Below are positions 20,849 to 48,899 of a stretch of 64,000 bases of DNA, one piece after another. The first letter of the stretch is position 1. Each line of letters opens with the position of its first letter. The notes beneath the pieces are model-generated. The model did no database searches and was not told the origin of the DNA. It worked only from the letters and a program-made list of their open reading frames with translations. The DNA comes from Saccharopolyspora gloriosae. Lineage in GTDB: Bacteria; Actinomycetota; Actinomycetes; Mycobacteriales; Pseudonocardiaceae. The position numbers and the translations under genes are program-made. The DNA is taken from the NCBI RefSeq assembly GCF_014203325.1, contig NZ_JACHIV010000001.1:869501-933500 (forward strand). Reading direction: 5' to 3'.

Positions 20849-20897
20849 AGTGAACGGACCGTTCGACCAATCCGCTTGGACGAACGGTCCGTTCACT
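20849..20897. repeat. 49-bp palindromic repeat, copy 1
   Basis: Both cores are perfect: GAACGGACCGTTC on the left and GAACGGTCCGTTC on the right. The arms pair over 22 bp except at positions 18/32. The loop reads TCCGC, the reverse orientation of the commonest loop. It starts 24 bases after the ATPase stop codon. Confidence 0.95.
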
Positions 20898-20955
20898 CCG
20901 ACCCGGTAGCCCCGGTGGTCGACGGCCCGGGACGGCGCTGCGGCCAGGAGCGTCG

Positions 20956-21004
20956 AGTGAACGGACCGTTCGTCCCATCCCGTTGGGCGAGCGGTCCGTT
21001 CACT
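20956..21004. repeat. 49-bp palindromic repeat, copy 2
   Basis: The left core is perfect and the right core is GAGCGGTCCGTTC. The loop is TCCCG, in reverse orientation. It starts 107 bases after copy 1. Confidence 0.95.
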
Positions 21005-21057
21005 CGGCGGCGGACGGTGCGGCCGGTGTCGTCGCCCGGTCGGTGGTGCTCGGGTGG

Positions 21058-21106
21058 AGTGAGCGGACCGTTCGTCCAACGGGATTGGGCAGGCGGTCCG
21101 TTCACT
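21058..21106. repeat. 49-bp palindromic repeat, copy 3
   Basis: The left arm begins AGTGAGCGGACCGTTC and the right arm is AGGCGGTCCGTTCACT. Four of its departures from perfect pairing are T/G oppositions. The loop CGGGA is in forward orientation. Confidence 0.95.
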
Positions 21107-21175
21107 CCGATGACGTGGTGGCGGTGAGTGATCGGGGGCACCGGGAGACGGGGGTCCGTTGACCGTTCGGCTGAG

Positions 21176-21194
21176 TTAGGGTCGGCTCTCCCGA
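21176..21194 (+). promoter_or_regulatory. Candidate IdeR/DmdR iron box upstream of the acyltransferase
   Basis: TTAGGGTCGGCTCTCCCGA agrees at 13 of 19 positions with the consensus TTAGGTTAGGCTAACCTAA. It ends 21 bases before the chosen start codon. It is weaker than the box at 31861, but its place before a siderophore gene supports it. Confidence 0.55.
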
Positions 21195-21215
21195 CTCAGC
21201 GTGAAGGGGTGGCGT

Positions 21216-22532
21216 GTGACAGGTGTGACCGAGAACGTGCAGGTGGATCCGCGGGCCGCGGTGTTGTTGCGAAGGTGGCTGGCGGAGACCCACACGCCGG
21301 TCGCGCTGGGTCCGCTGAAGGCGACGATCGGGCCGCTGCGGTTCACCACCGAGGTCACCTACCGCTCACCGACGGGCGCGCACGGCTTCGGCCCGATCCG
21401 GGTTGCGGACTCCGGTGCCGTCGCGGATTCGGCGCTGCTCGCCGCGGCCTGCTCGGCGGATGCGCGCGGCCGGGCGCCGGCCGACGCGCCGATCAACTCC
21501 GAGGGCGCGGGCACGTTGCTCGACTGGCTGCTGCACGCGGTGCGCACCGACGCGATCGATCCGCTGGCGGGCAACGACGACGTCGACGTGCTCGGGCAAG
21601 GCGTGTCGACGCAGGACGAGGCTCGGAGGTGGCTCGCGTCGCACGTGGAGAGCACGGTGACGCCCGCGCTGCGCAACCTCGATGGCCGCGCCGACCTGGA
21701 CGAGGTGACGGCGCGGCTGCTGACCCGCCGCTCGCTGGCCGTCATCGGGCGGTTCGGCCTGCGCGGGGTGGCCGACGAGTCGGTGCTGCTGGACGCGCTG
21801 GCCCACGACTTGGCGGCGCTCGCCGAGACCTACCCGGACACCGAGCGGGTGGTGCGGCACTGGCTGCACAGCGCCACCTTGACGGACCTGGCCGTGCTCA
21901 ACGGCTCCGGTCTGCGCTACCTGTCCGAGGGCAAGGTGGCGGTAGCGCCGGTGCGCTACGAAACGCCGAACCCGCTGCGCGAAGTGCCGGCGGAGGCGGT
22001 GCCGGGAGTTCCGGTGCCGGTGCTCGACGAGGGCTGGTCGTTGCGGCCGGTGGTGCTGGACTCCGAGGATCCCGCGCTGGTGCACCGCTGGATGAACGAG
22101 GACCACGTCGCGGTCAACTGGAACCAGACGTGGTCGTTGCAGCGCTGGCAGGACGAGCTCGGCGCGCAGCTCGGCGGCGAGCACTCGGTGCCGTGCATCG
22201 TGAGCCGCGACGGCCGCGCGGTCGCGTACGTGGAGCTGTACCGGGTGGTGCGGGACAAGCTCGCCGCCTGCTACCCGCTGCATCCGCGTGATCTCGGCGT
22301 GCACATCGCGATCGGGGAGAAGGACGCCGTCGGTCGCGGGCTCGGCTCGTCGTTGCTGACCTCGGTGGCGCGCGGCCTGCTCGCGGCGGATCCGGAGTGC
22401 GTGCGCGTCGTCGCGGAGCCCAACGTGCACAACGGCGCGTCGGTGGCGGCGTTCGGGAAGGCCGGTTTCGAGCGGTCCCGCGAGGTGGGGCTGCCCGGCA
22501 AGAACTCCGCCCTCATGGTCCACGCCCGCTGA
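21216..22532 (+). CDS. Siderophore acyltransferase (IucB/MbtK-type GNAT) with an unrecognised N-terminal domain
   Basis: A 438-residue protein. The C-terminal 190 residues are a siderophore-type GNAT domain (Acetyltransf_8): LVHRWMNEDHVAVNWNQTW and CYPLHPRDLGVHIAIG, then GLGSSLLTSVARGLL and NVHNGASVAAFGKAGF for CoA binding. Such enzymes acylate the hydroxyamino group of N-hydroxy-ornithine or -lysine to a hydroxamate. The N-terminal 240 residues I do not recognise. The GTG at 21216 is six bases after GAAGGGG; a GTG at 21201 is the alternative. It supplies the step missing between the hydroxylase at 32824 and the NRPS, and a candidate iron box lies upstream. Confidence 0.85.
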   Translation: MTGVTENVQVDPRAAVLLRRWLAETHTPVALGPLKATIGPLRFTTEVTYRSPTGAHGFGPIRVADSGAVADSALLAAACSADARGRAPADAPINSEGAGTLLDWLLHAVRTDAIDPLAGNDDVDVLGQGVSTQDEARRWLASHVESTVTPALRNLDGRADLDEVTARLLTRRSLAVIGRFGLRGVADESVLLDALAHDLAALAETYPDTERVVRHWLHSATLTDLAVLNGSGLRYLSEGKVAVAPVRYETPNPLREVPAEAVPGVPVPVLDEGWSLRPVVLDSEDPALVHRWMNEDHVAVNWNQTWSLQRWQDELGAQLGGEHSVPCIVSRDGRAVAYVELYRVVRDKLAACYPLHPRDLGVHIAIGEKDAVGRGLGSSLLTSVARGLLAADPECVRVVAEPNVHNGASVAAFGKAGFERSREVGLPGKNSALMVHAR

Positions 22533-22547
22533 TCGCGGTCCTGTCCG

Positions 22548-22596
22548 AGTGAACGGACCGTTCGTCCAACGCGATGGGACGAACGGTCCGTTCACC
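22548..22596. repeat. 49-bp palindromic repeat, copy 4
   Basis: Both cores are perfect. The loop region is CGCGA and the last base is C rather than T. It starts 15 bases after the acyltransferase stop codon. Confidence 0.95.
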
Positions 22597-22666
22597 AGCG
22601 CTGAGCAGCCATCGAGAGGAGTGAGCCAGCGTCACCCGGCGGCGGCCCGCTGTTCGAGAGCTCCGA

Positions 22667-22715
22667 AGTGAACGGACCGTTCGCCCAACCAGATTGGACG
22701 AACGGTCCGTTCACC
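22667..22715. repeat. 49-bp palindromic repeat, copy 5
   Basis: Both cores are perfect, with linker GCCCAA, loop CCAGA and linker TTGGAC. It is one of the best-paired copies. Confidence 0.95.
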
Positions 22716-22763
22716 CATATCCGCCTGCGCGGCGGCGCCGGAGGTGGGCGAGGGCTCGGGTGG

Positions 22764-22812
22764 AGTGAACGGACCGTTTGTCCCAAGGGATTGGACGGAC
22801 GGTCCGTTCACT
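22764..22812. repeat. 49-bp palindromic repeat, copy 6
   Basis: The left core is GAACGGACCGTTT and the right core GGACGGTCCGTTC. The changes at positions 16/34 and 15/35 are both T/G oppositions, which would still pair as U-G in RNA. Confidence 0.95.
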
Positions 22813-22895
22813 CGGAAACCGGCTGCGGGGGCTCGGGGTGCGGCGGCAGGGATGGACGGGAGTGGGGAGTCGTCCGTTCTTGCTCGTTGGGGTGG

Positions 22896-22944
22896 GGTGA
22901 ACGGATCGTTCGTCCCGTTGGGTTGGACGGACGGGCCGTTCACT
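22896..22944. repeat. 49-bp palindromic repeat, copy 7
   Basis: A diverged copy with left core GAACGGATCGTTC and right core GGACGGGCCGTTC. It ends 73 bases before the iron box of the NRPS operon. Confidence 0.92.
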
Positions 22945-23017
22945 TCTTCGTCTCCGGGGGTGGGGCTGAGAGGTAGCGCACGCGGTGGGGGTTCTGGTCA
23001 CCGGGCTGCGGGTGAAA

Positions 23018-23036
23018 TAAGGTTAGCCTTACTTTG
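23018..23036 (+). promoter_or_regulatory. Iron box upstream of the NRPS
   Basis: TAAGGTTAGCCTTACTTTG matches the IdeR/DmdR consensus TTAGGTTAGGCTAACCTAA at 13 of 19 positions, including the central GGTTAG and CT. It ends 22 bases before the NRPS start codon. Confidence 0.75.
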
Positions 23037-23058
23037 TCCGCGTCCCGTGGGGAGAACG

Positions 23059-26000
23059 ATGCCGGAGCCGCAGGGCGCGTCACTGCCGCTGTCCGCCGCG
23101 CAAGCGGGGATCTGGTTCGCGCAGGCGCTCGACCGCGCGAACCCGATCTACAACACCAGCGAGTACGTCGAGATCCACGGCCCGGTCGACCCGGAGCTGT
23201 TCGCCGACGCGCTGACGAGGGTGCTGGCCGAGGCCGACACGCTGCGGATCCGGGTGGTCGAGACCGAGGACGGTCCGCGGCAGCTGATCGACCGGCCGTG
23301 GGAGCCGAGCCTGCCGGTGGTCGACGTCAGCGGGGACGCGGACCCGATGTCGGCCGCGCTGCGGTGGATGCGCGGCGACCTCGCCGAGCAGGTGGACCTG
23401 GCGGTGGGGGGCCCGGAGGGCAGGCTGTTCACGGCGGCGCTGCTGAAGCCGGCCGACGATCGGTGGCTCTGGTACCAGCGGATCCACCACGTGGCCATCG
23501 ACGGCTACGGCTTCTCCATCGTGCTGCGCCGGGTCGCGGAGGTCTACACGGCGCTGGTCGCGGGCGATGAGCCGGGGCGGTCCCCGTTCGGGCCGCTGGA
23601 GTCGTTGCTGGAGGCGGAGCGGGACTACCGGGCGTCGGAGAAGTTCGAGCGGGATGCGGAGTTCTGGCGGGAGCGGTTCGCCGACCGCCCCGAACCGGGC
23701 ACCTTGGCGGGGCGGTCGGGCCGGACGGCGCGCACGTTCCTGCGCCGCGCGGCGGACGTGGATTCCGGAGCCGCCGACGCGCTGGCCGGGGCCGCGCAGG
23801 ACAGCCGCACGATCTGGCCGGACGCGTTGATCGCCGGGTTCGCGGCGTACCTGCACCGGGTGACGGGGCAGCGCGAGGTGGTGCTGGGGCTGCCGGTGAT
23901 GGGGCGGCTCGGGTCGGCCGCGTCGCGGGTGCCGGGCATGGTCGTGAACGTGCTGCCGCTGCGGCTGTCGGTCGCGCCGGATTCGACGCGCGACGAGCTG
24001 GTCGTGCAGGTGGCGAAGGCGGTCCGCCAGGTGCGCAAGCACCAGCAGTACCGGGGCGAGGACCTGCGCCGGGACTTGCGACTGCTGGGCACGGACCGGC
24101 CGCTGTTCGGTCCGATGATCAACGTGAAGGCGTTCGACTACGACCTGTGCTTCGGCGAGCACTCCGCGACGGTGCACAACCTGGCGGCGGGCCCGGTCGA
24201 CGACCTGACGGTGTCGGTCTACACCGTCGGCACCGGGATGCGGTTCGAGTTCGACGCGAACCCGGACCTCTACACCGCCGACGAGATCTCCGCGCACCAG
24301 GACAGGTTCCTGCGCTTCCTGAGCCGGTTCGCGGAGGCGAACGGGACGGTCGGCGAGGTCGACCTGCTCTCCGCTGAAGAACGCCGCTTGGTGCTCGACG
24401 AGTGGAACGGCGGCCCCGTCGGAGCCGACCGCACGGGGATGACGCTGCCGGACCTGTTCGAGGACCAGGTCCGCCGCACCCCGGAGGCGGTGGCGCTGAC
24501 CTGGGGCGACGAGCGGATCACCTACACCGAGCTGGACGCGCGGGCGAACCGGCTGGCGCACTGCCTCATCGACCACGGCGTCGGCCCGGAGCAGCTGGTG
24601 GCGCTGGCGCTGCCGCGTTCGGCGGAGCTGGTGGTCTCGGTGCTGGCGGTGCTCAAGGCGGGAGCGGCGTACTTGCCGCTGGATCCGGGGAACCCGGCGA
24701 GCCGCATCGCCTACATCGTCGCGGACTCCGAGCCCGCGATGCTGATCAGCGACACCGCGCACCACGCGAACCTCCCGGCCGACATCCCGCGGCTGCTGCT
24801 GGACGATCCGGCCGGAGCGGCGGAGATCGCCGAGCATTCCCAGCGCGATCCGCGCGGTGGGGAACGCGGGCCGTTGACGTCGGATCACGCCGCGTACGTC
24901 ATCTACACCTCTGGTTCCACCGGCCAGCCGAAGGGCGTGGTGATCCCGCACCACAACGTGGTGCGCTTGTTCACCGCGACCGACCCGTGGTTCTCCTTCG
25001 GGGCCCAGGACGTGTGGACGCTGTTCCACTCGTACGCCTTCGACTTCTCGGTGTGGGAGCTGTGGGGCGCGCTGCTGCACGGCGGCAGGCTGGTCGTGGT
25101 GCCGCACGAGGTGAGCCGTTCGCCGCAGGAGTTCCTGGGCCTGCTGGCGCGTGAGCGCGTCACCGTGCTGAACCAGACCCCGTCGGCGTTCTACCAGCTC
25201 ATCGAGGCCGACCGGAACGCTCCGGAGTTCGAGCTAGCGCTGCGGTACGTGGTGTTCGGCGGTGAGGCGCTGGACCTGTCCCGGCTGGACGACTGGTACG
25301 CGCGGCACCCGGACGACCCGAAGCTGATCAACATGTACGGGATCACCGAGACGACCGTGCACGTGTCGTACGTGGAGCTCGACCCGGAGCTGGTCGCGCG
25401 GCGCGACGGCAGCCTGATCGGCCGCGGCATCCCGGACCTGCGGGTGTACCTGCTGGACGAGAACCTGCACCCGGTGCCGCCGGGCGTGATCGGCGAGCTC
25501 TACATCTCGGGGGAGGGGCTGGCGCGCGGCTACCTGGGGCGGCGGGCGTTGACGGCGTCGCGGTTCGTCGCCGACCCGTTCGGCGAGAAGGGCGCCCGGA
25601 TGTACCGCTCCGGGGACTTGGCGCGGTGGCGCTCCGGTGGCCTGCTGGAGTTCGTCGGGCGAGCCGACCACCAGGTCAAGATCCGCGGTTTCCGCATCGA
25701 GCTCGGTGAGATCGAGGCACGGCTCGCGGCGCATCCGCAGGTCACGCAGGCCGCGGTGGTGGCGCGCGAGGACCAGCCCGGTGATCACCGGCTCGTCGGG
25801 TACGCCGTGTCGGCCGCCGAAGCCGCCGAGCTGCGATCGCACTTGGCGGCGGAGCTGCCGGACTACATGGTGCCTTCGGCGGTGGTGCTGCTGGACGCGC
25901 TTCCGCTGACCCCCAACGGAAAGCTCGACGCGAAGGCGCTGCCCGCGCCGGACTTCGCGCCGCAGGCGGCGGGCCGGGGCCCGCGCGACGCGGTCGAATC

Positions 26001-29000
26001 GGTGCTGTGCCGGCTGTTCGGCGAGGTGCTGGGCGTGCCGGAGGTCGGCATCGACGACGGTTTCTTCGATCTCGGCGGGCATTCGCTGCTGGCGACGCGG
26101 CTGCTGACGCGGGTGCGCGGCGAACTGGGCGTGGAGCTGTCCATCCGCACCTTGTTCGACCACCCGACCGTGGCGGGTCTGGTGCGGCGGATGGGGCCGA
26201 GCCTGCGCCCCCGCCCGGAACTGCGCCCGCGGCCCCGGCCGGACGAGGTACCGCTGTCCTTCGCGCAGCAGCGGCTCTGGTTCCTGCACCGGCTGGAGGG
26301 CCCCAGCGCCACCTACAACCTGCCGATCAGCGTGCGGCTGTCCGGTGAGCTCGACGTGGCCGCGTTGCGCGCCGCGCTCGGCGACGTGGTGGGCAGGCAC
26401 GAGAGCCTGCGCACCGCGTTCCCCGACCGCCAGGGCGAACCGCGTCAGTCCGTGCTGGAGCCTGGTGAGCCGGAGTTGCCGCTCGTCGAGACGACCGAGG
26501 CCGAGCTCGACGGCGAGCTCGCCGCGGCGGCCCGGCACGGTTTCGACCTGGCGCAGGAGCCGCCGCTGCGCGCCACGCTGCTGCGCACCGGCGAGCGGGA
26601 GCACGTGCTGCTGGTGCTGCTGCACCACATCGCCACCGACGAGTGGTCGATGGCGCCGCTGCTGCGCGACCTCGCCACCGCCTACGCGGCCCGCCGCCGC
26701 GGCGCGGAACCGGACTGGGCGCCGTTACCGGTGCAGTACGCGGATTACGCGCTGTGGCAGCGGGAACTGCTCGGTGACGAGCAGGACGAGCAGAGCCTCG
26801 CGGCGCGCGAACTCGCGTTCTGGCGGGACGCGCTGGCGGGGCTGCCCGACGAGCTCGCGCTGCCCGCCGACCACCAGCGGCCCGCGGTGCCCAGCCACCG
26901 GGGCGGCGCCGTGCGGTTCGGCTTCGACGCCGCGCTGCACCGGGACCTCCGCGCGCTGGCCACCGAACACCGGGCGAGCCTGTTCATGGTGGTGCAGGCC
27001 GGGTTGGCCGCGCTGCTGACCCGCCTCGGCGCGGGCACCGACATCCCCATCGGTTCGCCGGTCGCGGGACGCGGCGACGACCGGCTCGACGAGCTCGTCG
27101 GCTTCTTCGTCAACAGCCTGGTGCTGCGCACCGACACCTCCGGCGAGCCCACGTTCGCCGAGCTGCTGGACCGGGTGCGCCAGTCCGACCTGGCCGCCTA
27201 CGACCACGCCGAGCTGCCCTTCGAGCGGCTCGCGGAGGTGCTCAACCCGTCGCGGTCGCTGGCCCGGCACCCGCTGTTCCAGGTGATGCTGGCCTACTGG
27301 GGCGAAGCGGAGGCGGTGGACGCGGAGTTCCCCGGTCTCGACGCGACCGTGGACACCGTCGACGCGGGGGCCGCCAAGTTCGACCTGGCGCTGAGCCTGC
27401 GCGAGGTCTCCGACGGCGTCGAGGGCGTCGCCCAGTTCAGCGCGGACCTGTTCGAGCCCGCGAGCGTCGAGGCGCTGACCGCGCGGTTCGTGCGGCTGCT
27501 CACCGCCGCCGCCGCGGCCCCGGACACCCCGATCGGCGACCTGGACCTGCTCGATCCGGCGGAGCGACGGCGGATCTTCAACTGGGGCGACGCGATCCCG
27601 GACCAGGACGTGCGGCCCGCGACGTTCCCCGACCTGCTCGACCAGCGGATCGCGGAACGCCCGGACAAGGCGGCGCTGGTCTTCGAGGGCACCGAGCTCA
27701 GCTACGCGGAGCTGGGCGCGCGGGTGAACGCGCTGGCGCACCTGCTGATGGAGCGCGGGGCCGCGCCGGGCCGGATCGTCGGCGTGATGCTGCCGCGCTC
27801 CCCGGAACTGATCATCGGGTTGCTGGCGGTGCTCGCGTCCGGTGCGGCCTACCTGGCGCTGGACCCCGACTACCCGGCCGACCGGCTGGAGCACATGATC
27901 GACGACGCGGATCCGGGCCTGGTGCTGGCGTTCTCGGACCGCAGCCCGGACAACGCGCCGACGCTGCTGCTCGACAGCGCGCAGGTGCGCGCGGCCTGGG
28001 ACGCCGAGCCCACCGCGACACCGCCCCGGAAGTCCACAGTGGATGATCCGGCGTACGTCATCTACACCTCCGGTTCCACCGGCAGGCCCAAGGGCGTCGT
28101 CGTCCCGCACACCGGCGTCGCCGGTCTCGTCGCCACCCAGACCCAGCGGGTCGGCATCACCGCCGAGAGCAGGGTGCTGCAGTTCGCCTCGCCGAGCTTC
28201 GACGTCGCGTTCTGGGAGCTGTGCATGGGACTGCTCTCCGGCGGCACGCTCGTCGTGGTGCCCGCCGACCGGCGGGTGCCGGGCGCGCCGCTGGCCGACT
28301 ACGCCCGCGAGCACGAGGTGACGCACCTGGCGATCGGGCCGTCGGTGATGGGCATGTTCCCGCCCGACGTGGACCTGCCGCCGAACGCGACGCTGCTCTG
28401 CGGTGCCGAGAAGGTGCCCGCCGACCTGGTGGAACGCTGGTCGCGGGACCGCGTGATGCTCAACTGCTACGGCCCGACCGAGGCCACCGTGAACTCCACC
28501 CTGTGGGAGTGCGAACCCGACACCGGCACGTCGGTCCCGATCGGCGTGCCCGACCCCGGCACCCGGCTCTACGTGCTCGACGCCGCGCTGCGGCCGGTGC
28601 CGCCGGGAGTGGTCGGCGAGCTCTACGTCTCCGGAACCGGCCTCGCCCACGGCTACCTGAACCGCCCGTCGCTGACCGCCGAGCGCTTCGTCGCCGATCC
28701 GCACGGCGCGCCCGGCGCGCGCATGTACCGCACCGGTGACCTGGTGCGGTGGCGTGCCGACGGGGCGCTGGACTTCGCCGGGCGGGCCGACGACCAGGTC
28801 AAGATCCGCGGATTCCGCATCGAACCCGGTGAGATCGAGGCGTCGCTGGCCAAGCACCCCGCCGTCGGCCAGGTCGCCACCGTCGTGCGCGAGGACCGGC
28901 CCGGCGACAAGCGCCTCATCGGCTACGTCGTCGCCCAGCGGGAAGTGGAGCAGGCCGAACTGCGCGCGCACGTCGCCGAATCGCTGCCGGACTACATGGT

Positions 29001-30162: not shown

Positions 30163-30356
30163 GCAATCCGTTCGACGACCCCGAGGGCTCGTTCTACGCC
30201 CTGGTCAACGACGAGGACCAGTACTCGCTGTGGCCGGAGCGGATCAAGGTGCCCGACGGCTGGACGGTCGCCCACGGCCCGGCGGGCCGCGAAGCCTGCC
30301 TGGAACACATCGAGGTGCACTGGACGGACATCCGCCCGGTCCGCAACGGCGCGTAA
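30159..30356 (+). CDS. MbtH-like protein
   Basis: A 65-residue chaperone that binds NRPS adenylation domains and is often required for their folding or activity. The family pattern is complete: [24 protein letters not shown], then [21 protein letters not shown] and a final WTDIRP. Its ATG overlaps the NRPS stop by four bases, which fits stoichiometric coupling with the synthetase. Confidence 0.97.
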
Positions 30357-30370
30357 GTCGGGAACCAACA

Positions 30371-31792: not shown

Positions 31793-31860
31793 CGGCGCTC
31801 CCGGCCGGTCGTGCGTTCGGGCGAGATCTGGCCCACCGTGGGGAAGACATCCCGCCGTTC

Positions 31861-31879
31861 TATGGTTAGGCTAGCCTTA
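31861..31879 (+). promoter_or_regulatory. Iron box upstream of the siderophore-interacting protein
   Basis: TATGGTTAGGCTAGCCTTA agrees with the IdeR/DmdR consensus at 15 of 19 positions, the best match in the window. It lies 47 bases before the start codon. Confidence 0.82.
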
Positions 31880-31926
31880 ATTCCAGTGATCGTTCTGGAG
31901 ACAGTGAGGAAGGAACGCCAGGGCCG

Positions 31927-32760: not shown

Positions 32761-32823
32761 GCGGTCTGCGGATTCCACCGTGCCCGAGCGCGACACCGAC
32801 CGGGTACCGGCGAAGGGACAACC

Positions 32824-34167: not shown

Positions 34168-34182
34168 GCCCCCGGCATCCCG

Positions 34183-34231
34183 AGCGAACGGCCCGTCCGC
34201 CCAACCCCGTTGGACGAACGGTCCGCCCACT
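34183..34231. repeat. 49-bp palindromic repeat, copy 8
   Basis: A diverged copy: left core GAACGGCCCGTCC, right core GAACGGTCCGCCC, loop CCCCG. It is first in the six-copy cluster and lies 15 bases after the hydroxylase stop. Confidence 0.92.
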
Positions 34232-34255
34232 CCACCCTGCGCAGGAACGGAAGCG

Positions 34256-34304
34256 AGTGAACGGCCCGTTCGTCCGACCAGCTTGGTCAAACGGTCCGCT
34301 CACC
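34256..34304. repeat. 49-bp palindromic repeat, copy 9
   Basis: The left core is GAACGGCCCGTTC and the right core AAACGGTCCGCTC. The loop region is in reverse orientation (CCAGC). Confidence 0.92.
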
Positions 34305-34321
34305 TGCGCAGAGCGGGATTG

Positions 34322-34370
34322 AGTGAACGGCCTGTTCGTCCAATCCCGTTGGACGAACGGTCCGCTCACC
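34322..34370. repeat. 49-bp palindromic repeat, copy 10
   Basis: The left core is GAACGGCCTGTTC and the right core GAACGGTCCGCTC. The loop TCCCG is in reverse orientation. Confidence 0.93.
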
Positions 34371-34427
34371 TCATTCCGGACCGGCGCGGCGCCGTCTTCT
34401 CCGGGAGCTTGCCGCCGGGGCGGGTGG

Positions 34428-34476
34428 AGTGAACGGACCGTTCGTCCAGTCGGATTGGGCAGACGGTCCGTTCACT
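34428..34476. repeat. 49-bp palindromic repeat, copy 11
   Basis: The left core is perfect; the right arm reads AGACGGTCCGTTCACT. The spacing to copies 10 and 12 is 106-108 bases. Confidence 0.94.
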
Positions 34477-34535
34477 CGATCCGAGGTCGTTCGTGGGTGA
34501 GGTGGCTCCAGCGGAGGTCCGGTCGGGCTGGAGGG

Positions 34536-34584
34536 GGTGAACGGACCGTTCGTCCAACGGGATTGGGCGGAGGGTCCGTTCACT
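34536..34584. repeat. 49-bp palindromic repeat, copy 12
   Basis: The left core is perfect and the right core is GGAGGGTCCGTTC, a variant shared only with copy 13 next to it. Confidence 0.94.
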
Positions 34585-34641
34585 TCGTCCCGGATCGGCG
34601 CGGTGGCGCCCGCTCTGGGGGTGTGCCGCTGGGCTGGAGGG

Positions 34642-34690
34642 GGTGAACGGACTGTTCGTCCAAGGGGATTGGGCGGAGGGTCCGTTCACT
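34642..34690. repeat. 49-bp palindromic repeat, copy 13
   Basis: The left core is GAACGGACTGTTC and the right core GGAGGGTCCGTTC, as in copy 12. Both the copy and the 57-base spacer before it resemble their neighbours, which suggests tandem duplication. Confidence 0.94.
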
Positions 34691-34765
34691 CGGGGTGGGG
34701 TTGTGATCACCGGCACAGGGGTGGGGTGGGAACAAAGGGCCGTGATCGGGTGGTTGGGAACGGCG

Positions 34766-37322: not shown

Positions 37323-37352
37323 TCCACTCCTCCGCCCGCCGGCGCTGATCGG

Positions 37353-37401
37353 AGTGAACGGCCCGTTCGTCCCATCTGATCGGTCGAACGGGCCGTCGAC
37401 C
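37353..37401. repeat. 49-bp palindromic repeat, copy 14
   Basis: The left core is GAACGGCCCGTTC and the right core GAACGGGCCGTCG. The central pair of the arms is C/G here instead of the usual A/T, a compensated change. The outer right end has decayed. Confidence 0.9.
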
Positions 37402-37415
37402 GCTGCACGCGTGGT

Positions 37416-37464
37416 GGTGAACGGTCCGTTTGCCCAGTGGGATTGGTCGAACGGGACGTTCACT
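37416..37464. repeat. 49-bp palindromic repeat, copy 15
   Basis: The left core is GAACGGTCCGTTT and the right core GAACGGGACGTTC, a right-arm variant found only in this cluster. It starts 63 bases after copy 14. Confidence 0.92.
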
Positions 37465-37479
37465 CGGTGCTGGCGCTGT

Positions 37480-37528
37480 GGTGAACGGTCCGTCTGCCTA
37501 ATGGGATTGGTCGAACGGGACGTTCACC
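37480..37528. repeat. 49-bp palindromic repeat, copy 16
   Basis: The left core is GAACGGTCCGTCT and the right core GAACGGGACGTTC, with loop TGGGA. It starts 64 bases after copy 15. Confidence 0.92.
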
Positions 37529-37543
37529 CGGGACTGTCACTGG

Positions 37544-37592
37544 CGTGAACGGCCCGTTTGCCCGACGGGATTGGTCGAACGGGACGTTCACT
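37544..37592. repeat. 49-bp palindromic repeat, copy 17
   Basis: The left core is GAACGGCCCGTTT and the right core GAACGGGACGTTC. It starts 64 bases after copy 16 and ends 33 bases from the stop of the minus-strand gene at 37626. Confidence 0.92.
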
Positions 37593-37625
37593 CCGAAGCC
37601 GATCCTGCGCTCGCGTCGGGCGTCG

Positions 37626-41095: not shown

Positions 41096-41300
41096 GACCC
41101 CAAGCTAGGTCCGCCTCGGATGGCCGGAAAGCGTTGTGGCGCTTAGGAAATCATTACGGGAGCCAGGTCCTTACGGATTCGTGACGCCTCCGCCGAAGTG
41201 GCGGGGAAGCCCGCCGCGCGCCCCTAAGGTGGATCGGATGACCGGACAGGTTCTGCCAACCCGCCAGTGGCGACCCCCCGCGGTGGGCCACCATGTGCCC

Positions 41301-42011
41301 ATGAACAGCTCCGGAACCGAGCTCGGCCGGATCCTGGTGGTCGACGACGACGCCACGGTCCGCGACGTCGTCGGCCGCTACCTGCGCCGGGACGGGCACG
41401 AGGTGGTGGAGGCCGCCGACGGGGAGATGGCGTTGCACCTGCTGCAACGGCGACCGCCGGATCTCGTGGTGCTGGACCTGATGCTGCCCGGCATGGACGG
41501 CGTCGAGGTGTGCCGCCGCATCCGGGACGCCGGCAGCACCCCCGTGATCATGCTGACCGCGCTCGGCGAGGAATCCGACCGCATCACCGGGTTGCGCACC
41601 GGTGCCGACGACTACGTGGTGAAACCGTTCAGCCCCGGCGAACTGGCGTTGCGAGTGGCGTCGGTGCTGCGCAGGGCCCGCAACGCGGTGGAGCCCAACG
41701 CGGGCGCCCGGATCGCCGACGGCGACCTCCAGGTGGACACCGGCGCGCGCACCGCCGTGCTCGGCGGCACGTCGCTGACCTTGGCGACCCGCGAGTTCGA
41801 CCTGCTGGCGTTCTTCCTGTCCCACCGCGGCCACGCCTACTCGCGGACGGAGCTGCTCAGCAAGGTCTGGGGCTGGGAGTTCGGCGACCAGTCGACCGTC
41901 ACGGTGCACGTGCGCCGGCTCCGGGAGAAGGTCGAGCCGGACCCGGCGAGCCCGCGTCGCATCGCCACCGTCTGGGGAGTCGGCTACCGCTACGACGGAC
42001 TCGGGGACTGA
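41301..42011 (+). CDS. OmpR/PhoB-family response regulator
   Basis: A 236-residue regulator. The receiver domain carries the acidic triad VVDDD, phospho-acceptor Asp59 in LVVLDLMLPGMDG, and the conserved Lys in VVKPFSPGEL. The winged-helix DNA-binding domain ends RIATVWGVGYRYD. ATG 41301 gives the normal family N-terminus; an upstream ATG at 41238 with AAGGTGG before it would add 21 residues and cannot be excluded. It forms a pair with the kinase three bases downstream. Confidence 0.94.
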   Translation: MNSSGTELGRILVVDDDATVRDVVGRYLRRDGHEVVEAADGEMALHLLQRRPPDLVVLDLMLPGMDGVEVCRRIRDAGSTPVIMLTALGEESDRITGLRTGADDYVVKPFSPGELALRVASVLRRARNAVEPNAGARIADGDLQVDTGARTAVLGGTSLTLATREFDLLAFFLSHRGHAYSRTELLSKVWGWEFGDQSTVTVHVRRLREKVEPDPASPRRIATVWGVGYRYDGLGD

Positions 42012-42014
42012 GCC

Positions 42015-43034
42015 GTGTTCGTCACCTTCTCGCACGTCGCGCCCTACGCCATCGGGTTCTCGCTGCCGGTGGCGCTGCTGGGGGCGGCGCTGCTGTTCGC
42101 GATGCGGCGGCGGGCTTCGCTGGCGCTGGCCATGACGGTGCTGGTGCTGATCCCGCTGGCCGCGACGCTGGTCGGGGTGCTGGCGGTGACGGGCTTCATG
42201 TTCTCCCACCAGCTGACGATCACGGTGATCGTGTGCTTCGCGGTGGCGCTGGTGACGGTGCCGGTTGCGATCCTGCTGGGACGGGCGTTGTCCCAGCGCA
42301 CCGTGTGGGAGCAGGAGGCCCGCGACCGGGAGCGGGCCGCGGAGAGCGCCCGGCGGGAGCTGGTCGCCTGGATCAGCCACGACCTGCGCACCCCGCTGGC
42401 CGGGATGCGGGCGATGTCGGAGGCGCTGGCCGACGGAGTGGTGGACCGGCCGGACGAGGTCGTGGAGTACGCCCGCCGCATCGGCGGCGAGGTGCGCCAG
42501 CTGTCGGGCATGGTGGACGACCTGTTCGAGCTGTCCCGCATCGCGGCGGGCGCGCTGCGCATCACCCCCGCCGCGGTGCCGCTGCGCGACGTCGTCAGCG
42601 AAGTCACCGAATCGGAGCGCATCCTCGCCGGAACCCGTGGTGTGACGCTGGAGGTGCGGGCGCGGAGCTGGCCCGTCGTGTGGGGTTCCGACCCGGAGTT
42701 GGCGCGGGTGGTACGCAACCTGGTGGGCAACGCGATCCGGCACACCCCGCGGCACGAGACCGTCGTGGTGGCGGTGCGCGAGGAAGCCGGGCGCGCGTGG
42801 CTGTCGGTGCAGGACGCGTGCGGCGGCATCGGCTCCGACGAGCTGGCCCGGGTGTTCGACGTGGGTTATCGCGGTGGGACGGCGCGGGACTCCGGGTCGG
42901 AGACGACGCGGCGCGCGGGGCTCGGCCTGGCCATCACCCGAGGTCTGGTGGAGGCCCACGACGGGCGGATCAGCGTCGTCAACGACGGGCCGGGCTGCCG
43001 GTTCGACGTCGCCTTGCCGCTGGTGCCCGCCTGA
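42015..43034 (+). CDS. Membrane sensor histidine kinase
   Basis: A 339-residue kinase with three N-terminal helices (about residues 10-30, 38-60 and 68-90), no sizeable extracellular domain, a HAMP-like linker, the phosphorylated His122 in [15 protein letters not shown], the N box [11 protein letters not shown], and ATP-lid boxes DACGGIG and RAGLGLAI. The lack of an outer sensor domain suggests it senses the membrane or an intramembrane partner. The GTG start is three bases after the regulator stop. The target genes are not evident; the divergent GT2 operon is one candidate. Confidence 0.94.
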
Positions 43035-43044: not shown

Positions 43045-43671
43045 TCAGCGCAGGACGGGGAAGACCTCGGCGCCACCGCGTCCGGTGGCCGCCTCCACGA
43101 GGTGCACCGGGTCGGCGACGGCGGTGAGCAGCGCGGCGGTCTCCCGCATCGGTTCTCCCGCGAGCGGGCCGGGTTTCGGCAGTTCCAGCGCGGTGGCCAT
43201 GTCGAGGTAGTGCACCACCGCCTCCATCAGCTGGATGCGGAGCACTTCGCCCCCGGCCACGGTGCCCAGCCCGATGTACGGGACGAGCCGGTCGAGGTCC
43301 TGGCCGCGCAACCGCGCGATCGTCCGCGGTGCCACGTCGGTGAACTGGTCGACCAGTTCGGCAGGCGAACGGTCATCGGCGATGCCCGCATCGCGGATCT
43401 GGTCGGCCGCGGTGTGCGCGACTCCGCCGGGGCGCTGCATCAACGCCAGCAGCCGTGCCGCGTCCGCGAACGTCGGCGCGGTCCCGGGGGTGACGGCGTC
43501 CTCTGCGTCGAGCGCGGCTCCGACCATGGCGGGGACGTCCGCGCAGTGCGCGAACACGTGCCGCACGGTCCAGCCCTCCAGCCGCGTCGGCCGAGCCCAC
43601 TGCTCGGCGTCGAGATTCCGGCCGAGTTCCGCCCAAGCCTGCCAAGCTCGGTCGAGCGCGTCCACGATCAT
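43045..43671 (-). CDS. Maleylpyruvate isomerase-like (DinB-fold, mycothiol-linked) family protein
   Basis: A 208-residue helical protein. RPTRLEGWTVRHVFAHCADVPAMVGAAL is the metal-binding signature of the mycothiol-dependent maleylpyruvate isomerase N-terminal family, and EVLRIQLMEAVVHYLDMATAL supplies further His and Asp residues. Most members in actinobacteria are uncharacterised. ATG 43671 follows GGGAG. It is convergent with the kinase gene (10 bases apart) and divergent from the Crp-family gene. Confidence 0.82.
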   Translation of the reverse strand: MIVDALDRAWQAWAELGRNLDAEQWARPTRLEGWTVRHVFAHCADVPAMVGAALDAEDAVTPGTAPTFADAARLLALMQRPGGVAHTAADQIRDAGIADDRSPAELVDQFTDVAPRTIARLRGQDLDRLVPYIGLGTVAGGEVLRIQLMEAVVHYLDMATALELPKPGPLAGEPMRETAALLTAVADPVHLVEAATGRGGAEVFPVLR

Positions 43672-43792
43672 GGTGTACTCCCAGGGCAACGGCTGTCGGG
43701 TGCCAGGAGATCACGACCGCGCACGTTTCGGTGGATGTTCGCGGACGACGATCGGTGCCGCGCGGTCATCGGCATGTCGGATGGGGGCGTGC

Positions 43793-44446
43793 ATGGGCGA
43801 ACGGTGGAATGCGGAGGCGGTGGCCGCGTTTCGGGCGGTGTCGAGGCGGCGGCGGTGGCGGGCGAGCGCCGTGCTGTTCTCGGTGGGCGACGAATCGGAC
43901 CACGTGCTGCTCATCCGCAGCGGCCGGGTCAAGGTGTGGTCGATGTCGGCGCGCGGAACCGAGGCGATGCTCGCGATCCGCGGGCCGGGCTCGATGATCG
44001 GCGATTTCGCCGCGGTCGACGGGGAACCGCGCGGCGCCACGGTGACCGCGCTTGAGCAGGTCGAAGCCGACGTCGTGTCCGGCGGGGACTTCCGCCGGTT
44101 CCTGCACGAACACCCGGAGGCGATGTTCGAACTGCTCACCCGGGTCGTCGCCCGGTTGCGGGAATCGGACCGGCACCGGGTGGAGTTCGCCTCCTCCGGT
44201 GTCGCGGAACGGCTCGCCCGGCTGCTGCTGGAACTGGTGCGCGAGCACGGAGTTCCGGACGGTGCCGGGCGGCGCGCGATCGCGATCCCGCTGAGCCAGG
44301 CGGAACTCGCGAGCGCGACGAGCGCGTCCCGGGAGGCGGTGGCCCGTGCACTGCGCGAACTGCGGGAATGCGGCGCGGTCAGCACGCAGCGCAGGCAGAT
44401 CGTCGTGCTGCGAGGTGACGTGCTCGCCGAGTACGCGGCGCGGTAG
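43793..44446 (+). CDS. Crp/Fnr-family transcriptional regulator
   Basis: A 217-residue regulator with a cyclic-nucleotide-binding beta barrel (residues 25-115; FSVGDESDHVLLIRSGRVKVW, GPGSMIGDFAAVDGEPRGATV) and a C-terminal helix-turn-helix (AIPLSQAELASATSASREAVARALREL). The ligand pocket lacks the exact RTA-type motif of E. coli CRP, so cAMP binding is uncertain. ATG 43793 is chosen; an in-frame ATG at 43781 is possible. It ends three bases from the convergent PycTM-like gene, an intriguing neighbour for a possible cNMP sensor. Confidence 0.9.
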   Translation: MGERWNAEAVAAFRAVSRRRRWRASAVLFSVGDESDHVLLIRSGRVKVWSMSARGTEAMLAIRGPGSMIGDFAAVDGEPRGATVTALEQVEADVVSGGDFRRFLHEHPEAMFELLTRVVARLRESDRHRVEFASSGVAERLARLLLELVREHGVPDGAGRRAIAIPLSQAELASATSASREAVARALRELRECGAVSTQRRQIVVLRGDVLAEYAAR

Positions 44447-44449
44447 TGC

Positions 44450-45070
44450 TCAGCTCCCCGCAGCGGGCAGGAACAGGAGCAGGCCGGTCCAGAGCAGGAA
44501 CGCCAGCAGCGCGGTGCAGAAGCAGCGCAACGCGTTGCGCAGCCGCCGGTACTTCGTGCCCGCGATGCCCGCGAGCGTCTCCGCCTGCTGCCACGCCTGC
44601 GCGCACAGCTCGACGGTGGTCGCCGTGTGCAGCTGCGCCGCGCTGTGCCGCTGGAAGGTGGGGAACGCGAACAGGTTCGGCCTGCCCGACGGCACGCGGG
44701 TGCGCGGGGTGAGCGCGGACGTCAGGTAGAGCAGTGCCCCCAGCGCCGCGCACAACGACACCGCCAGCAGCGCCAGCGAGGTGAACTTCGACGCGGCGTC
44801 CGACAGCGCGGGCGGCGCGGAGATCGCTTTGCTCGCGCCGCCGATGCAGATGCCGAGCGCGGAGATCAGCAGGCCCGCTTTGGTGTCCGCTCCGGCGATG
44901 GAACTGCGGAAGTCGCCCGCGGTGCGCAGCGCGACCTCCAGCTCCTGCTCTGCGGTGAGGTGACCGCCCGGTTCGGGAGCGTCCGGCCCGTCCTGCCGCA
45001 GTCCGACGCGGGTCGGGGTGGCGTGGTCCGGGGTGGTGCGGTCGATCGTGGCGAGCTGCTCGCGGGGCAT
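44450..45070 (-). CDS. Pycsar effector-like (PycTM/DUF5706) membrane protein
   Basis: A 206-residue protein with a disordered N-terminus (1-40), an amphipathic helix, and membrane segments at about 65-82, 97-118 and 181-203. ADTKAGLLISALGIC before the first helix and the spacing of the last helix match the PycTM-type effector family, whose tested members perforate the membrane when a cognate pyrimidine cyclase makes cCMP or cUMP during phage infection. No cyclase gene lies in the window, so this is an orphan or a member with another role. ATG 45070 follows GGAGGAA. The assignment is from pattern only. Confidence 0.62.
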   Translation of the reverse strand: MPREQLATIDRTTPDHATPTRVGLRQDGPDAPEPGGHLTAEQELEVALRTAGDFRSSIAGADTKAGLLISALGICIGGASKAISAPPALSDAASKFTSLALLAVSLCAALGALLYLTSALTPRTRVPSGRPNLFAFPTFQRHSAAQLHTATTVELCAQAWQQAETLAGIAGTKYRRLRNALRCFCTALLAFLLWTGLLLFLPAAGS

Positions 45071-45212
45071 GGCTTCCTCCGTGTCCGTCGGTGCGGGGTG
45101 AGATCAGCTCATCACTGTCCGTGCCTGAACACTGCGTCAGAATCCACACAACGAAAGCGCTCCACCCCACACCCACCCGGACCAACCCCCCCGCCCAGCG
45201 AAGCTCCAACGG

Positions 45213-45261
45213 AGTGAACGGCCCGTTCGTCCAACGGCATTGGTCGAACGGTCCGTTCACT
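45213..45261. repeat. 49-bp palindromic repeat, copy 18
   Basis: The left core is GAACGGCCCGTTC and the right core GAACGGTCCGTTC, with loop CGGCA. It lies 142 bases upstream of the PycTM-like start codon. Confidence 0.94.
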
Positions 45262-45294
45262 CAATTCCGGGTGTCGAGCGAGCCGCGGGGGTGG

Positions 45295-45343
45295 AGTGAA
45301 CGGCCTGTTCGTCCAACGGGATTGGGCAAAGGGTCCGTTCGCT
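45295..45343. repeat. 49-bp palindromic repeat, copy 19
   Basis: The left core is GAACGGCCTGTTC and the right core AAAGGGTCCGTTC, with loop CGGGA. It lies 38 bases downstream of the stop of the minus-strand TetR gene. Confidence 0.92.
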
Positions 45344-45381
45344 CCGGATGGGGTGCTCCCGCGGCGCGCGCCGCCTGGCGG

Positions 45382-46016: not shown

Positions 46017-46126
46017 GCTAGCGTAGGTCGAACCGGCCGGGTCGGGCCACTCAAGTGGGCCGTCCGCTCGGCGCCGAGCGATACCGGCCGGTCCTTCTTC
46101 TCCTTCGTCGAACACGGAGTTTCCTC

Positions 46127-47062: not shown

Positions 47063-47066
47063 CGTC

Positions 47067-47102: not shown

Positions 47103-47106
47103 GCGC

Positions 47107-47895: not shown

Positions 47896-47989
47896 CGATG
47901 CTCGCTTTCTCGTGGCGTCTCCCGTCGGGTGCCCAGGGCGGGCCGTCCCGACGCGCAGGGTGCGTGAGCCGAAACCACGCTTGAGCGGG

Positions 47990-48038
47990 TAGTTGCGCAC
48001 GCTTGATAAATAGTTGCACGCGCCTTCTATCTGCGCAA
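47990..48038. promoter_or_regulatory. Candidate MarR operator region
   Basis: TAGTTGC occurs twice, 21 bases apart (47990 and 48011), and TTGCGCA at 47993 has an inverted partner TGCGCAA at 48032. The region lies between the divergent SDR and MarR genes. Confidence 0.5.
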
Positions 48039-48104
48039 GCTGCTAGACTGGGAGGGGAGATCGAGCTCACCGGCCGTGGGGGCTCACCGGTAGGAGGTGC
48101 GCGA

Positions 48105-48554
48105 GTGGGTATCGCCGACGACGCGGTCGAAGTGCGCGCGCAAGGCTGGCGCACGCTCGCCGCGCTGCACGGAATGCTGGAGACGGCGCTGGAGAAAGCG
48201 CTCAGCACCGGACACGGCCTGTCCGTCGTCGAATACACCGTGCTCGACGCGCTCAGCCGCCAGGACGGTTGGCACATGCGGATGCAGCAGCTCAGCCGTG
48301 CCGCCGCACTCAGCGGCAGCGCCACGACGAGGCTCGTGACCAGGCTCGAAGACCGCGGCCTGCTCACCCGCATCCTGTGCAAGGACGACCGCCGCGGCAT
48401 CTACACGGAGCTCACCGACGAAGGCCGCGCCCTGCTGGAGCAGGCCCGCCCGACCCACGACGCGGCGCTGGAGAAGTCCCTCGCCGAAGCCGAACAGGTA
48501 CCGGAGCTCAGCGATCTGGTCGACGCCTTCCACCGCGTCACCGCCCGCACCTGA
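48105..48554 (+). CDS. MarR-family transcriptional regulator
   Basis: A 149-residue winged-helix regulator. The recognition region is LSRAAALSGSATTRLVTRLEDRGLL, followed by the wing ILCKDDRRGIYTELTDEGRALL. The GTG at 48105 has AGGAGGTG seven bases upstream, the best ribosome site in this area; the frame opens earlier at 48003. It is divergent from the SDR gene and probably controls it. A four-copy repeat cluster begins 18 bases after its stop. Confidence 0.93.
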   Translation: MGIADDAVEVRAQGWRTLAALHGMLETALEKALSTGHGLSVVEYTVLDALSRQDGWHMRMQQLSRAAALSGSATTRLVTRLEDRGLLTRILCKDDRRGIYTELTDEGRALLEQARPTHDAALEKSLAEAEQVPELSDLVDAFHRVTART

Positions 48555-48572
48555 CTCCCGCCGCCCCGTCGA

Positions 48573-48621
48573 AGTGAACGGACCGTTCGCCCAACAGGAT
48601 TGGACGAACGGTCCGTTCACT
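48573..48621. repeat. 49-bp palindromic repeat, copy 20
   Basis: Both cores are perfect, with loop CAGGA. It lies 18 bases after the MarR stop and is one of the best-preserved copies. Confidence 0.95.
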
Positions 48622-48653
48622 TTTCCGCCTCGATTCGCGGAGGCCGTCCGTGG

Positions 48654-48702
48654 GGTGAACGGACCGTTGGTCCAAGGAGTTTGGGCGAACGGTCCGTTCA
48701 CT
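48654..48702. repeat. 49-bp palindromic repeat, copy 21
   Basis: The left core is GAACGGACCGTTG and the right core is perfect. The GTTG left-arm variant is unique to this cluster. Confidence 0.94.
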
Positions 48703-48750
48703 CTTTCCGGACCGCACGATTCGGGGGTGGCTCGCGGAGGCCGTTCGTGG

Positions 48751-48799
48751 GGTGAACGGACCGTTGGTCCAACGGGTTTGGGCGAACGGTCCGTTCACT
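48751..48799. repeat. 49-bp palindromic repeat, copy 22
   Basis: The left core is GAACGGACCGTTG and the right core is perfect. The bases before it (CGCGGAGGCCGTTCGTGG) almost repeat those before copy 21, a sign of tandem duplication. Confidence 0.94.
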
Positions 48800-48850
48800 C
48801 GCTTCGGGGCTGAATCGTGCTCGGGGCGTGGTGGCTGCCGGCGTGCTCGG

Positions 48851-48899
48851 GGTGAGCGGACCGTTGGTCCAGTGGGATTGGACGGACGGACCGTTCGCT
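48851..48899. repeat. 49-bp palindromic repeat, copy 23
   Basis: A diverged copy with left core GAGCGGACCGTTG and right core GGACGGACCGTTC. It directly abuts the stop codon of the minus-strand methyltransferase gene. Confidence 0.92.

What the first reader, a model, noticed from the sequence alone, without database searches (positions are those of the whole stretch)
20849..48899. A family of 49-bp doubly palindromic intergenic repeats, 23 copies in six clusters
Seen directly: 23 copies of one 49-base element (listed as copies 1-23), all outside genes. Each is a long inverted repeat with 22-base arms around a 5-base loop. The left arm begins AGTGAACGGACCGTTC and continues GTCCAA; the right arm mirrors it. 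Inside each arm sits a second palindrome, GAACGGnCCGTTC, so the element holds two symmetric cores inside a symmetric whole. I know of no named family with this sequence. The density in 28 kb, with none in the first 20 kb or last 15 kb, is striking. Possible natures are a REP/BIME- or MITE-like element, an RNA 3'-end element, or a protein-binding array.
Basis: seen in the sequence. Interest (0 to 1): 0.88.

Follow-up and report, generated by a model that had tools for sequence, protein, structure and literature searches.

The report
Phased DNA-site arrays between Saccharopolyspora genes
A soil bacterium carries hundreds of copies of a 49-base mirror-image DNA sequence in the gaps between its genes, and their rhythmic spacing suggests that they are docking sites for an unknown DNA-binding protein rather than RNA hairpins or jumping DNA.

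Summary
In detail: 23 copies of a 49-bp, doubly palindromic element in six intergenic arrays. The window lies in a 6.83-Mb Saccharopolyspora chromosome with roughly 270 copies (extrapolated); five same-genus genomes carry the family. Base pairing is not what is preserved: arm substitutions are not compensated in four genomes, G-U and A-C mismatches are balanced in tandem arrays, and there is no U-tract. Each arm is conserved as a sequence at fixed length. Neighbouring copies are helically phased: one sharp period near 11.2 bp; held-out arrays are phased too, but with best period 10.4. Array sites are stable between species (14 of 15 and 13 of 16 occupied conserved gene pairs shared), while copy number and loop sequence turn over, the loop in concert. 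Arrays abut stop codons and seldom come within 50 bp of start codons. No RAYT-type transposase exists in G000-G003, which include the three copy-richest genomes. Best reading: phased binding arrays for an unidentified DNA-binding protein. The protein and any effect on transcription or chromosome folding are untested.

The parts
20849..20897 (.). Array 1, copy 1
   Evidence: PWM 82.1
20956..21004 (.). Array 1, copy 2
   Evidence: 72.7
21058..21106 (.). Array 1, copy 3
   Evidence: 70.5
22548..22596 (.). Array 2, copy 1
   Evidence: 75.8
22667..22715 (.). Array 2, copy 2
   Evidence: 79.1
22764..22812 (.). Array 2, copy 3
   Evidence: 76.3
22896..22944 (.). Array 2, copy 4
   Evidence: 63.4
34183..34231 (.). 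Array 3, copy 1
   Evidence: 61.0
34256..34304 (.). Array 3, copy 2
   Evidence: 63.6
34322..34370 (.). Array 3, copy 3
   Evidence: 72.4
34428..34476 (.). Array 3, copy 4
   Evidence: 77.0
34536..34584 (.). Array 3, copy 5
   Evidence: 74.0
34642..34690 (.). Array 3, copy 6
   Evidence: 69.9
37353..37401 (.). Array 4, copy 1
   Evidence: 56.0
37416..37464 (.). Array 4, copy 2
   Evidence: 65.9
37480..37528 (.). Array 4, copy 3
   Evidence: 61.5
37544..37592 (.). Array 4, copy 4
   Evidence: 64.1
45213..45261 (.). Array 5, copy 1
   Evidence: 79.3
45295..45343 (.). Array 5, copy 2
   Evidence: 70.0
48573..48621 (.). Array 6, copy 1
   Evidence: 78.6
48654..48702 (.). Array 6, copy 2
   Evidence: 71.2
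48751..48799 (.). Array 6, copy 3
   Evidence: 74.6
48851..48899 (.). Array 6, copy 4
   Evidence: 62.0
20825..21224 (.). Intergenic gap of array 1 (ABC transporter gene end to acetyltransferase gene); the orthologous gap holds 2 copies in G002, 4 in G003, 0 in G004
22533..23058 (.). Intergenic gap of array 2 (acetyltransferase to NRPS gene); 4 copies in G002, 3 in G003, 0 in G004 and G005
34168..34765 (.). Intergenic gap of array 3 (Lys/Orn monooxygenase to luciferase-like gene); 4 copies in G001, 3 in G002, 1 in G003; 0 in G004 and G005, where the downstream neighbour differs
37323..37625 (.). Convergent gap of array 4, at the edge of a gene block without orthologues at this place in G001-G003; no copies after the orthologous upstream gene in G001-G005
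45071..45381 (.). Intergenic gap of array 5; 2 copies in G001 (neighbouring gene differs), 2 in G002, 4 in G003
48555..48899 (.). Convergent gap of array 6; 1 copy in G001 (gap only 67 bp), 2 in G002, 4 in G003

Best explanation
Each 49-bp element is a pair of inverted DNA recognition sites (consensus arm rGTGAACGGaCCGTTCGnCCAA, arms mirrored around a free 5-base loop) for one sequence-specific, multimeric DNA-binding protein that has not been identified. Elements are strung in intergenic arrays at helically phased distances, so that complexes on neighbouring elements face each other and can touch or loop the short DNA between them. Arrays abut stop codons or fill convergent gaps and mostly keep clear of start codons, as expected if a bound array would disturb initiation. 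Its likely effect is a protein-made barrier or anchor at gene borders (transcription roadblock/insulator or chromosome-folding site). Shown: copies, positions, arm conservation without compensation, helical phasing, site stability, copy-number turnover, concerted loop change. Inferred: the protein, its multimerisation, and the barrier or anchor role.
For: Spacing of 225 neighbouring pairs in 113 arrays of six genomes has a single strong spectral peak at 11.24 bp (R 0.41, next peak 0.15; 0 of 2000 smoothed nulls; cluster bootstrap 11.04-11.42; one spacing per array R 0.44). Taken apart, G000 zone, G001, G002 and G003 each show it (jitter p at most 0.002); 25 further G000 spacings give p 0.058. 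Held-out arrays are phased as well: 40 spacings, 29 after collapsing near-equal ones, R 0.74, 0 of 2000 nulls. The control, offsets of arrays to gene ends, has R 0.07 (n 152). About 11 bp is the period of protein-made DNA loops in living E. coli and a cyanobacterium (PMC3922697, passages). Substitutions are not compensated: 24 against 34.5 expected by shuffling, 25 against 24.6, 17 against 19.2, 20 against 31.2 in G000-G003; a shuffle test on another repeat of this genome does show compensation (296 of 315 cells Watson-Crick against 146 shuffled). Arm positions 7, 8, 19 and 20 are at least 98% fixed in every genome group, while positions 18 and 23-25 are free. All but one of the matches above 40 bits in the gapped search are exactly 54 bases long. 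In window and sample 0 of 64 distances to start codons are under 50 bp while 30 of 110 to stop codons are. Occupied gene pairs are shared between species: 14 both and 1 single with G002, 13 both and 3 single with G003.
Against: No cognate protein was found. The best period differs between sets, and the bootstrap ranges do not overlap: 11.04-11.42 in discovery, 10.04-10.86 in the held-out set. Predicted in-phase facing cores at 11.2 bp are not met there after collapsing (phase -0.22 turns, V-test p 0.24; at 10.8 bp, chosen afterwards, phase -0.02). Within the element conservation shows no helical rhythm (4162 of 5000 nulls as strong), and the 30 bp between the two cores of one element is not a whole number of turns. 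Phasing could also be left by a phased insertion or copying process. Avoidance of start codons is not absolute: 1 of 69, 1 of 58 and 2 of 46 distances in the zones of G000, G002 and G003 are under 50 bp. Elements are strongly clumped, which a general boundary role does not explain. Of ten genes checked beside divergent arrays, one is a regulator of PucR type, the others enzymes or non-regulators.
Confidence: 0.55

Rival explanations
1. A non-autonomous mobile or recombinogenic element: a transposase or recombinase binds the arms, adds copies beside existing ones with helical preference, and spreads new loop types through the genome. Phasing is then a trace of the insertion complex, not a host function.
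For: Copy number at shared sites differs in 10 of 14 (G002) and 11 of 13 (G003). Loops change in concert: TAGA-type 0 of 97 in G000 but 30 of 61 in G003 (17 of 21 arrays); GGGAT 47 of 97 in G000 but 3 of 61 in G003.
Against: Sites hardly move. No Y1 transposase in G000-G003 (other transposase families were not searched). No match in the plasmid or phage collections for one copy used as query and none in viral contigs to a strict pattern. No target-site duplication was demonstrated.
Confidence: 0.22
2. Neutral minisatellite-like repeats: an old palindromic repeat grows and shrinks by slippage and ectopic exchange, and survives where intergenic DNA is free.
For: In G000 adjacent spacers are more alike (0.576 against 0.479; 18 of 42 above 0.6 against 255 of 2203), so some copies arose by local duplication; e.g. 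48635-48710 and 48732-48807 are 92% identical.
Against: Spacers in G002 and G003 are at background likeness (0.476 and 0.490 against 0.476 and 0.481) while many arm positions stay above 95% fixed. Neutrality gives no helical phase and no constant length.
Confidence: 0.12
3. RNA 3'-end hairpin clusters: transcription terminators or mRNA stabilisers of the hairpin-cluster type.
For: Very stable hairpin as RNA (one copy: -48.2 kcal/mol, z -8.5). 25 of 26 non-divergent arrays begin within 44 bp of a stop codon; 13 of 40 convergent gaps in the zone are occupied. Hairpin clusters are proposed terminators in GC-rich bacteria (PMC8355165, passages).
Against: No compensation, G-U 75 against A-C 64 in tandem arrays, p 0.4, and 22 against 37 in convergent ones, 1 of 54 with five or more T in 8 nt, arrays between divergent genes: 3 of 29 in window plus sample, 5 of 29 in the zone (overlapping sets). 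RNA gives no reason for a helical spacing period.
Confidence: 0.1

Closest known systems
REP/BIME with RAYT transposase (PMC2817692: search listing and start of abstract; rest recalled)
   Same: Short palindromes, intergenic, clusters, about 270 copies per genome (estimate)
   Different: No Y1 transposase in G000-G003; conserved arms without compensation; helical phasing
Clusters of hairpins as intrinsic terminators (PMC8355165, passages)
   Same: Several strong hairpins after stop codons in GC-rich genomes
   Different: One sequence family with fixed length; pairing not preserved by evolution; also between divergent genes
Mycobacterial MIRU-type minisatellites (recalled)
   Same: Intergenic arrays with labile copy number near stop codons
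   Different: Palindromic arms, phased spacing, spacers mostly unrelated
matS/parS-type chromosome-organising sites and looping operators (recalled; in vivo looping period from PMC3922697, passages)
   Same: Palindromic protein sites concentrated in one chromosome zone; helical phase
   Different: 49-bp paired sites in arrays of up to six; no protein known

Membership tests
REP/BIME-RAYT | Y1 (RAYT) transposase in the genome | tested here: not met
   PF01797 in 0 of the 4 genomes G000-G003; present in G004 and G005
REP/BIME-RAYT | Short palindromes, many copies, extragenic | tested here: met
MITE | Occupied and empty sites differ between relatives | tested here: not met
   only 1 of 15 and 3 of 16 occupied conserved pairs differ
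MITE | Target-site duplication | tested here: inconclusive
   Orthologous gaps of five arrays were read by eye; no clean empty site, no systematic test
Intrinsic terminator | U-tract after the stem | tested here: not met
   1 of 54 tandem elements with five or more T in 8 nt
Structured RNA | Compensatory changes in the stem | tested here: not met
Structured RNA | Match to a described family | tested here: not met
   no Rfam match at gathering score at the elements; (20800-23000 only): sub-threshold matches, best 49.5 bits against a cut-off of 200
Phased protein-binding array | Neighbour spacing in helical register | tested here: met
   exact period unsettled
Phased protein-binding array | A protein that binds the sequence | not testable with these tools
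   Needs pull-down, EMSA or ChIP
Minisatellite (VNTR) | Copy number varies at fixed loci | tested here: met
   equal copy number in only 4 of 14 and 2 of 13 shared sites
Minisatellite (VNTR) | Whole unit with spacer tandemly repeated | tested here: inconclusive
   seen in part of G000 arrays, not in G002 or G003

The most novel reading that the evidence does not exclude
A genus-level system of helically phased intergenic protein arrays, concentrated in one conserved chromosome zone and maintained by genome-wide concerted evolution, acts as a chromosome-organising or gene-border insulating system of an actinobacterium, with an unknown architectural protein.
Probability: 0.3. Interest if true: 0.85.

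Novelty: new variant of a known kind. Interest (0 to 1): 0.72.

Why it matters
Bacterial intergenic palindromes are usually filed as terminators or relics of transposition. Here the sequence record itself argues for neither: pairing is not preserved, while helical phase is. That gives a directly testable case of a dispersed architectural DNA site system in actinobacteria. The dense zone of roughly 230 kb, dense also in two sister species, is a ready target for pull-down and contact mapping. It also shows how stable sites can coexist with genome-wide homogenisation of a repeat, an open question in repeat evolution.

Tried and rejected
RNA selection: tested by compensation, G-U against A-C balance and U-tracts, rejected as main driver. 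RAYT carrier: rejected for G000-G003. Mobile DNA: no matches in plasmids, phages or viral contigs. Ancestral single 17-bp palindrome GTGAANGGNCCNTTCAC as the basic unit: present in 32 of 150 family genomes but at 11 or fewer places each, and in 5 of 296 phylum genomes (own included), so not an abundant unit. Double palindromy as a family-wide rule: not general, since several long hairpins of G010 and G018 have arms that are not self-palindromic. Helical rhythm of conservation inside the element: not significant. Search for a regulator beside divergent arrays: one PucR-type regulator among ten genes. Literature: five searches aimed at a printed description, with sequence, genus or repeat terms, showed none in their listings; only open-licence PMC text was searched, so print elsewhere is not excluded. 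PMC3610266 (S. erythraea transcriptome; outline and passages) mentions long inverted repeats numbered 1-5; the passages seen do not describe this element. Corrected on checking: in my first held-out spacing set 3 of 44 spacings, from G001, were also in the discovery set through L050 and L052; one search repeats the test with all G001 spacings left out (40 remain). Confidence in the best reading was lowered from 0.58 to 0.55, and the mobile rival raised from 0.20 to 0.22, because that test separates the two period estimates further and because start-codon avoidance proved not absolute in the zone.
Full report
Observation. The window holds 23 copies of a 49-bp element in six intergenic clusters, aligned without a gap. 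The core GAACGGnCCGTTC has 37 matches at up to one mismatch against 0.39 expected. The window is G000:C1:869501-933500 of a 6,825,909-bp chromosome. A strict full-length pattern in the named genome collection matched 23 stretches, all of Saccharopolyspora sp. NFXS83; records of the window's own genome may be left out there. G001 is very probably that strain, because contig lengths 63998, 78560, 251684 and 17159 agree. The genus name of G000 rests on this.

Number and range. A half-arm pattern gives 413 matches in G000 and 0 in its control. Same-genus genomes have 335, 398, 198, 193 and 202; the 35 other genomes searched have 0 to 9 each. In 80 evenly spaced 20-kb stretches (1.6 Mb, 23% of the genome) a position matrix built on the window copies finds 64 elements at 30 bits or more beside the 23 of the window, and the reversed sequence gives none (two weaker hits were dropped). 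That extrapolates to about 270 per genome. They are clumped: 14 of 80 stretches hold all 64. A zone at 0.66-0.93 Mb holds 97 (25-bit threshold). With the covariance model, 62 of 150 genomes of the family and 32 of 46 genera give at least one match at E 0.001 or better (at most 38 candidates scored per genome, so counts are lower bounds). The best hits differ in sequence by genus, so likely relatives of the element are spread through the family.

Position. Of 87 elements in window and sample, none overlaps a predicted gene by more than 10 nt. They form 29 arrays of 1 to 6 copies: 10 in convergent, 16 in tandem and 3 in divergent gaps. Divergent gaps make 27% of intergenic bases but hold 5 of 87 elements; convergent gaps make 19% and hold 28 of 87. 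In the zone 13 of 40 convergent, 11 of 156 tandem and 5 of 41 divergent gene pairs are occupied. Of the 26 non-divergent arrays of window and sample, 25 begin within 44 bp of a stop codon and one at 130. In window and sample no element lies within 75 bp of a start codon (0 of 64 distances under 50); in the zones of G000, G002 and G003 1 of 69, 1 of 58 and 2 of 46 distances are under 50. Genes were called by a script of mine, so starts are approximate.

What evolution preserves. If the hairpin mattered, changes in one arm would be matched in the other. They are not: compensated double changes number 24, 25, 17 and 20 in G000, G001, G002 and G003, against 34.5, 24.6, 19.2 and 31.2 when partners are shuffled (the window alone gave the same answer). 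G-U pairs are not commoner than A-C mismatches along the transcript in tandem arrays (75 and 64, p 0.4; convergent 22 and 37). Only 1 of 54 tandem copies has five or more T in 8 nt after the stem. Arm positions 7, 8, 19 and 20 are at least 98% fixed in all groups, and 18 and 23-25 are free. Length is constant: in the gapped model search all but one match above 40 bits is 54 bases long. So each arm is kept as a sequence, which is the mark of a DNA recognition site.

Phasing. Distances between neighbouring copies run from 61 to 132 bp, with rare longer ones (one search lists 166 and 361 in G002 within single gaps), and they are not smooth: they pile up near 63, 74, 86, 96, 108 and 119. In 225 spacings from 113 arrays (neighbours up to 160 bp apart) the only strong period between 4 and 25 bp is 11.24 (R 0.41; next 0.15 at 7.4), 0 of 2000 smoothed nulls reach it, and the array bootstrap gives 11.04-11.42. 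It was first noticed in 58 G000 spacings, then seen in G001, G002 and G003 separately (p 0.0005, 0.001 and under 0.0005) and in the G000 zone (p 0.002), more weakly in 25 other G000 spacings (p 0.058). After near-equal spacings of one array were collapsed, 192 remain with R 0.39. A held-out set without G001 (40 spacings: 31 from ten arrays and 9 from listed positions; 29 after collapsing) has R 0.74 but best period 10.36 (10.04-10.86). The phasing is therefore repeated; its exact period is not settled, and the two ranges do not overlap. At 11.1 bp the facing cores of neighbours in the discovery set are whole turns apart (phase 0.01); in the held-out set this is so at 10.8 bp (-0.02) but not at 11.2 (-0.22). 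Offsets from arrays to gene ends show no phase (R 0.07, n 152). Lac-type DNA loops in living cells show an 11-bp period (PMC3922697, passages).

Turnover. The zone was compared with G002 and G003. Of 154 gene pairs conserved with G002, 14 are occupied in both, 0 only in G000 and 1 only in G002; with G003 the numbers are 156, 13, 1 and 2. Copy number is equal in only 4 of 14 and 2 of 13. In the window itself array 3 has 6, 4, 3 and 1 copies in G000-G003 with promoter-side flanks alike, and none in G004 and G005, where the next gene differs. The loop drifts in concert: TAGA-type loops in 0 of 97 copies of G000, 3 of 65 of G002, 30 of 61 of G003 (17 of 21 arrays); GGGAT loops in 47, 18 and 3. Within multi-copy arrays of tandem and convergent gaps in the three zones, the first copy has the C-rich loop 26 times and the G-rich loop 8 times, the last copy 5 and 29 times, the rest being undecided. 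Local duplication is visible in G000 (adjacent spacers 0.576 against 0.479) but not in G002 or G003. How loops spread between distant arrays is unexplained.

Reading. A sequence-specific protein binding two inverted sites per element, in phased arrays, explains arm conservation without compensation, fixed length, phasing and the preference for stop-codon sides of gaps. A mobile element whose insertion complex is phased would explain turnover better and site stability worse; no carrier was found (PF01797 absent from G000-G003; nothing in plasmids, phages or viral contigs). The role is inferred: a roadblock or insulator at gene borders, or a chromosome-folding anchor. GC skew in the sample puts the origin near 6.4 Mb and the terminus near 3.03 Mb, so the dense zone is in neither place.

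Novelty. Rfam has no match at gathering score at the elements. Five literature searches aimed at a description showed none. I call it a new variant of a known kind: operator-like arrays are known, but of a dispersed, phased, concerted-evolving set of this form I know none (recall, not a search).

Noticed in passing
G000 genome-wide, e.g. L116:2233-2263, L136:8298-8328; none found in the window: A second repeat of about 100-120 bp, nearly invariant (alignment of 26 of 55 sampled copies) except for a 7-bp stem that is hypervariable yet compensated: 296 Watson-Crick, 5 G-U, 14 other cells in the 45 of 55 copies that could be parsed, against 146, 47 and 122 when shuffled, 19 distinct left stems. 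48 of 55 lie on the strand of the upstream gene, 42 of these with the inner hairpin 53-83 bp after its stop codon. 255 matches in G000, 67, 140 and 21 in G001-G003, 0 in the 37 other genomes searched. No Rfam match near a cut-off. It deserves its own study.
   Followed up: partly
L197:9625-9731 (G018): Another genus of the family has palindromes (GTGAACGGCCCGTTCAC) repeated at 30-bp steps, the same core-to-core distance as inside the 49-bp element.
   Followed up: no
L193:1884-1924 and L194:11120-11174 (G010): A different long hairpin (TTTTCCCTAAAGTTGTG...) occurs twice in 80 kb of G010.
   Followed up: no
window 37626-43034: Gene block without orthologues in G001-G003 at this place; three of its seven genes have orthologues in G004 and G005. 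Array 4 lies at its edge.
   Followed up: partly
window 43235-45070: A cNMP-binding Crp-like regulator gene converges on a gene with a PycTM (Pycsar effector) domain; no cyclase was looked for.
   Followed up: no
window 21201-34167: Siderophore-type cluster: acetyltransferase, two-module NRPS with thioesterase, MFS transporter, siderophore-interacting protein, Lys/Orn monooxygenase.
   Followed up: no
window 55400-55638 and 12796-12894: Cobalamin and TPP riboswitches.
   Followed up: no
G000 2.98-3.08 Mb: Sharp GC-skew swing from +0.126 to -0.128 at the presumed terminus.
   Followed up: no
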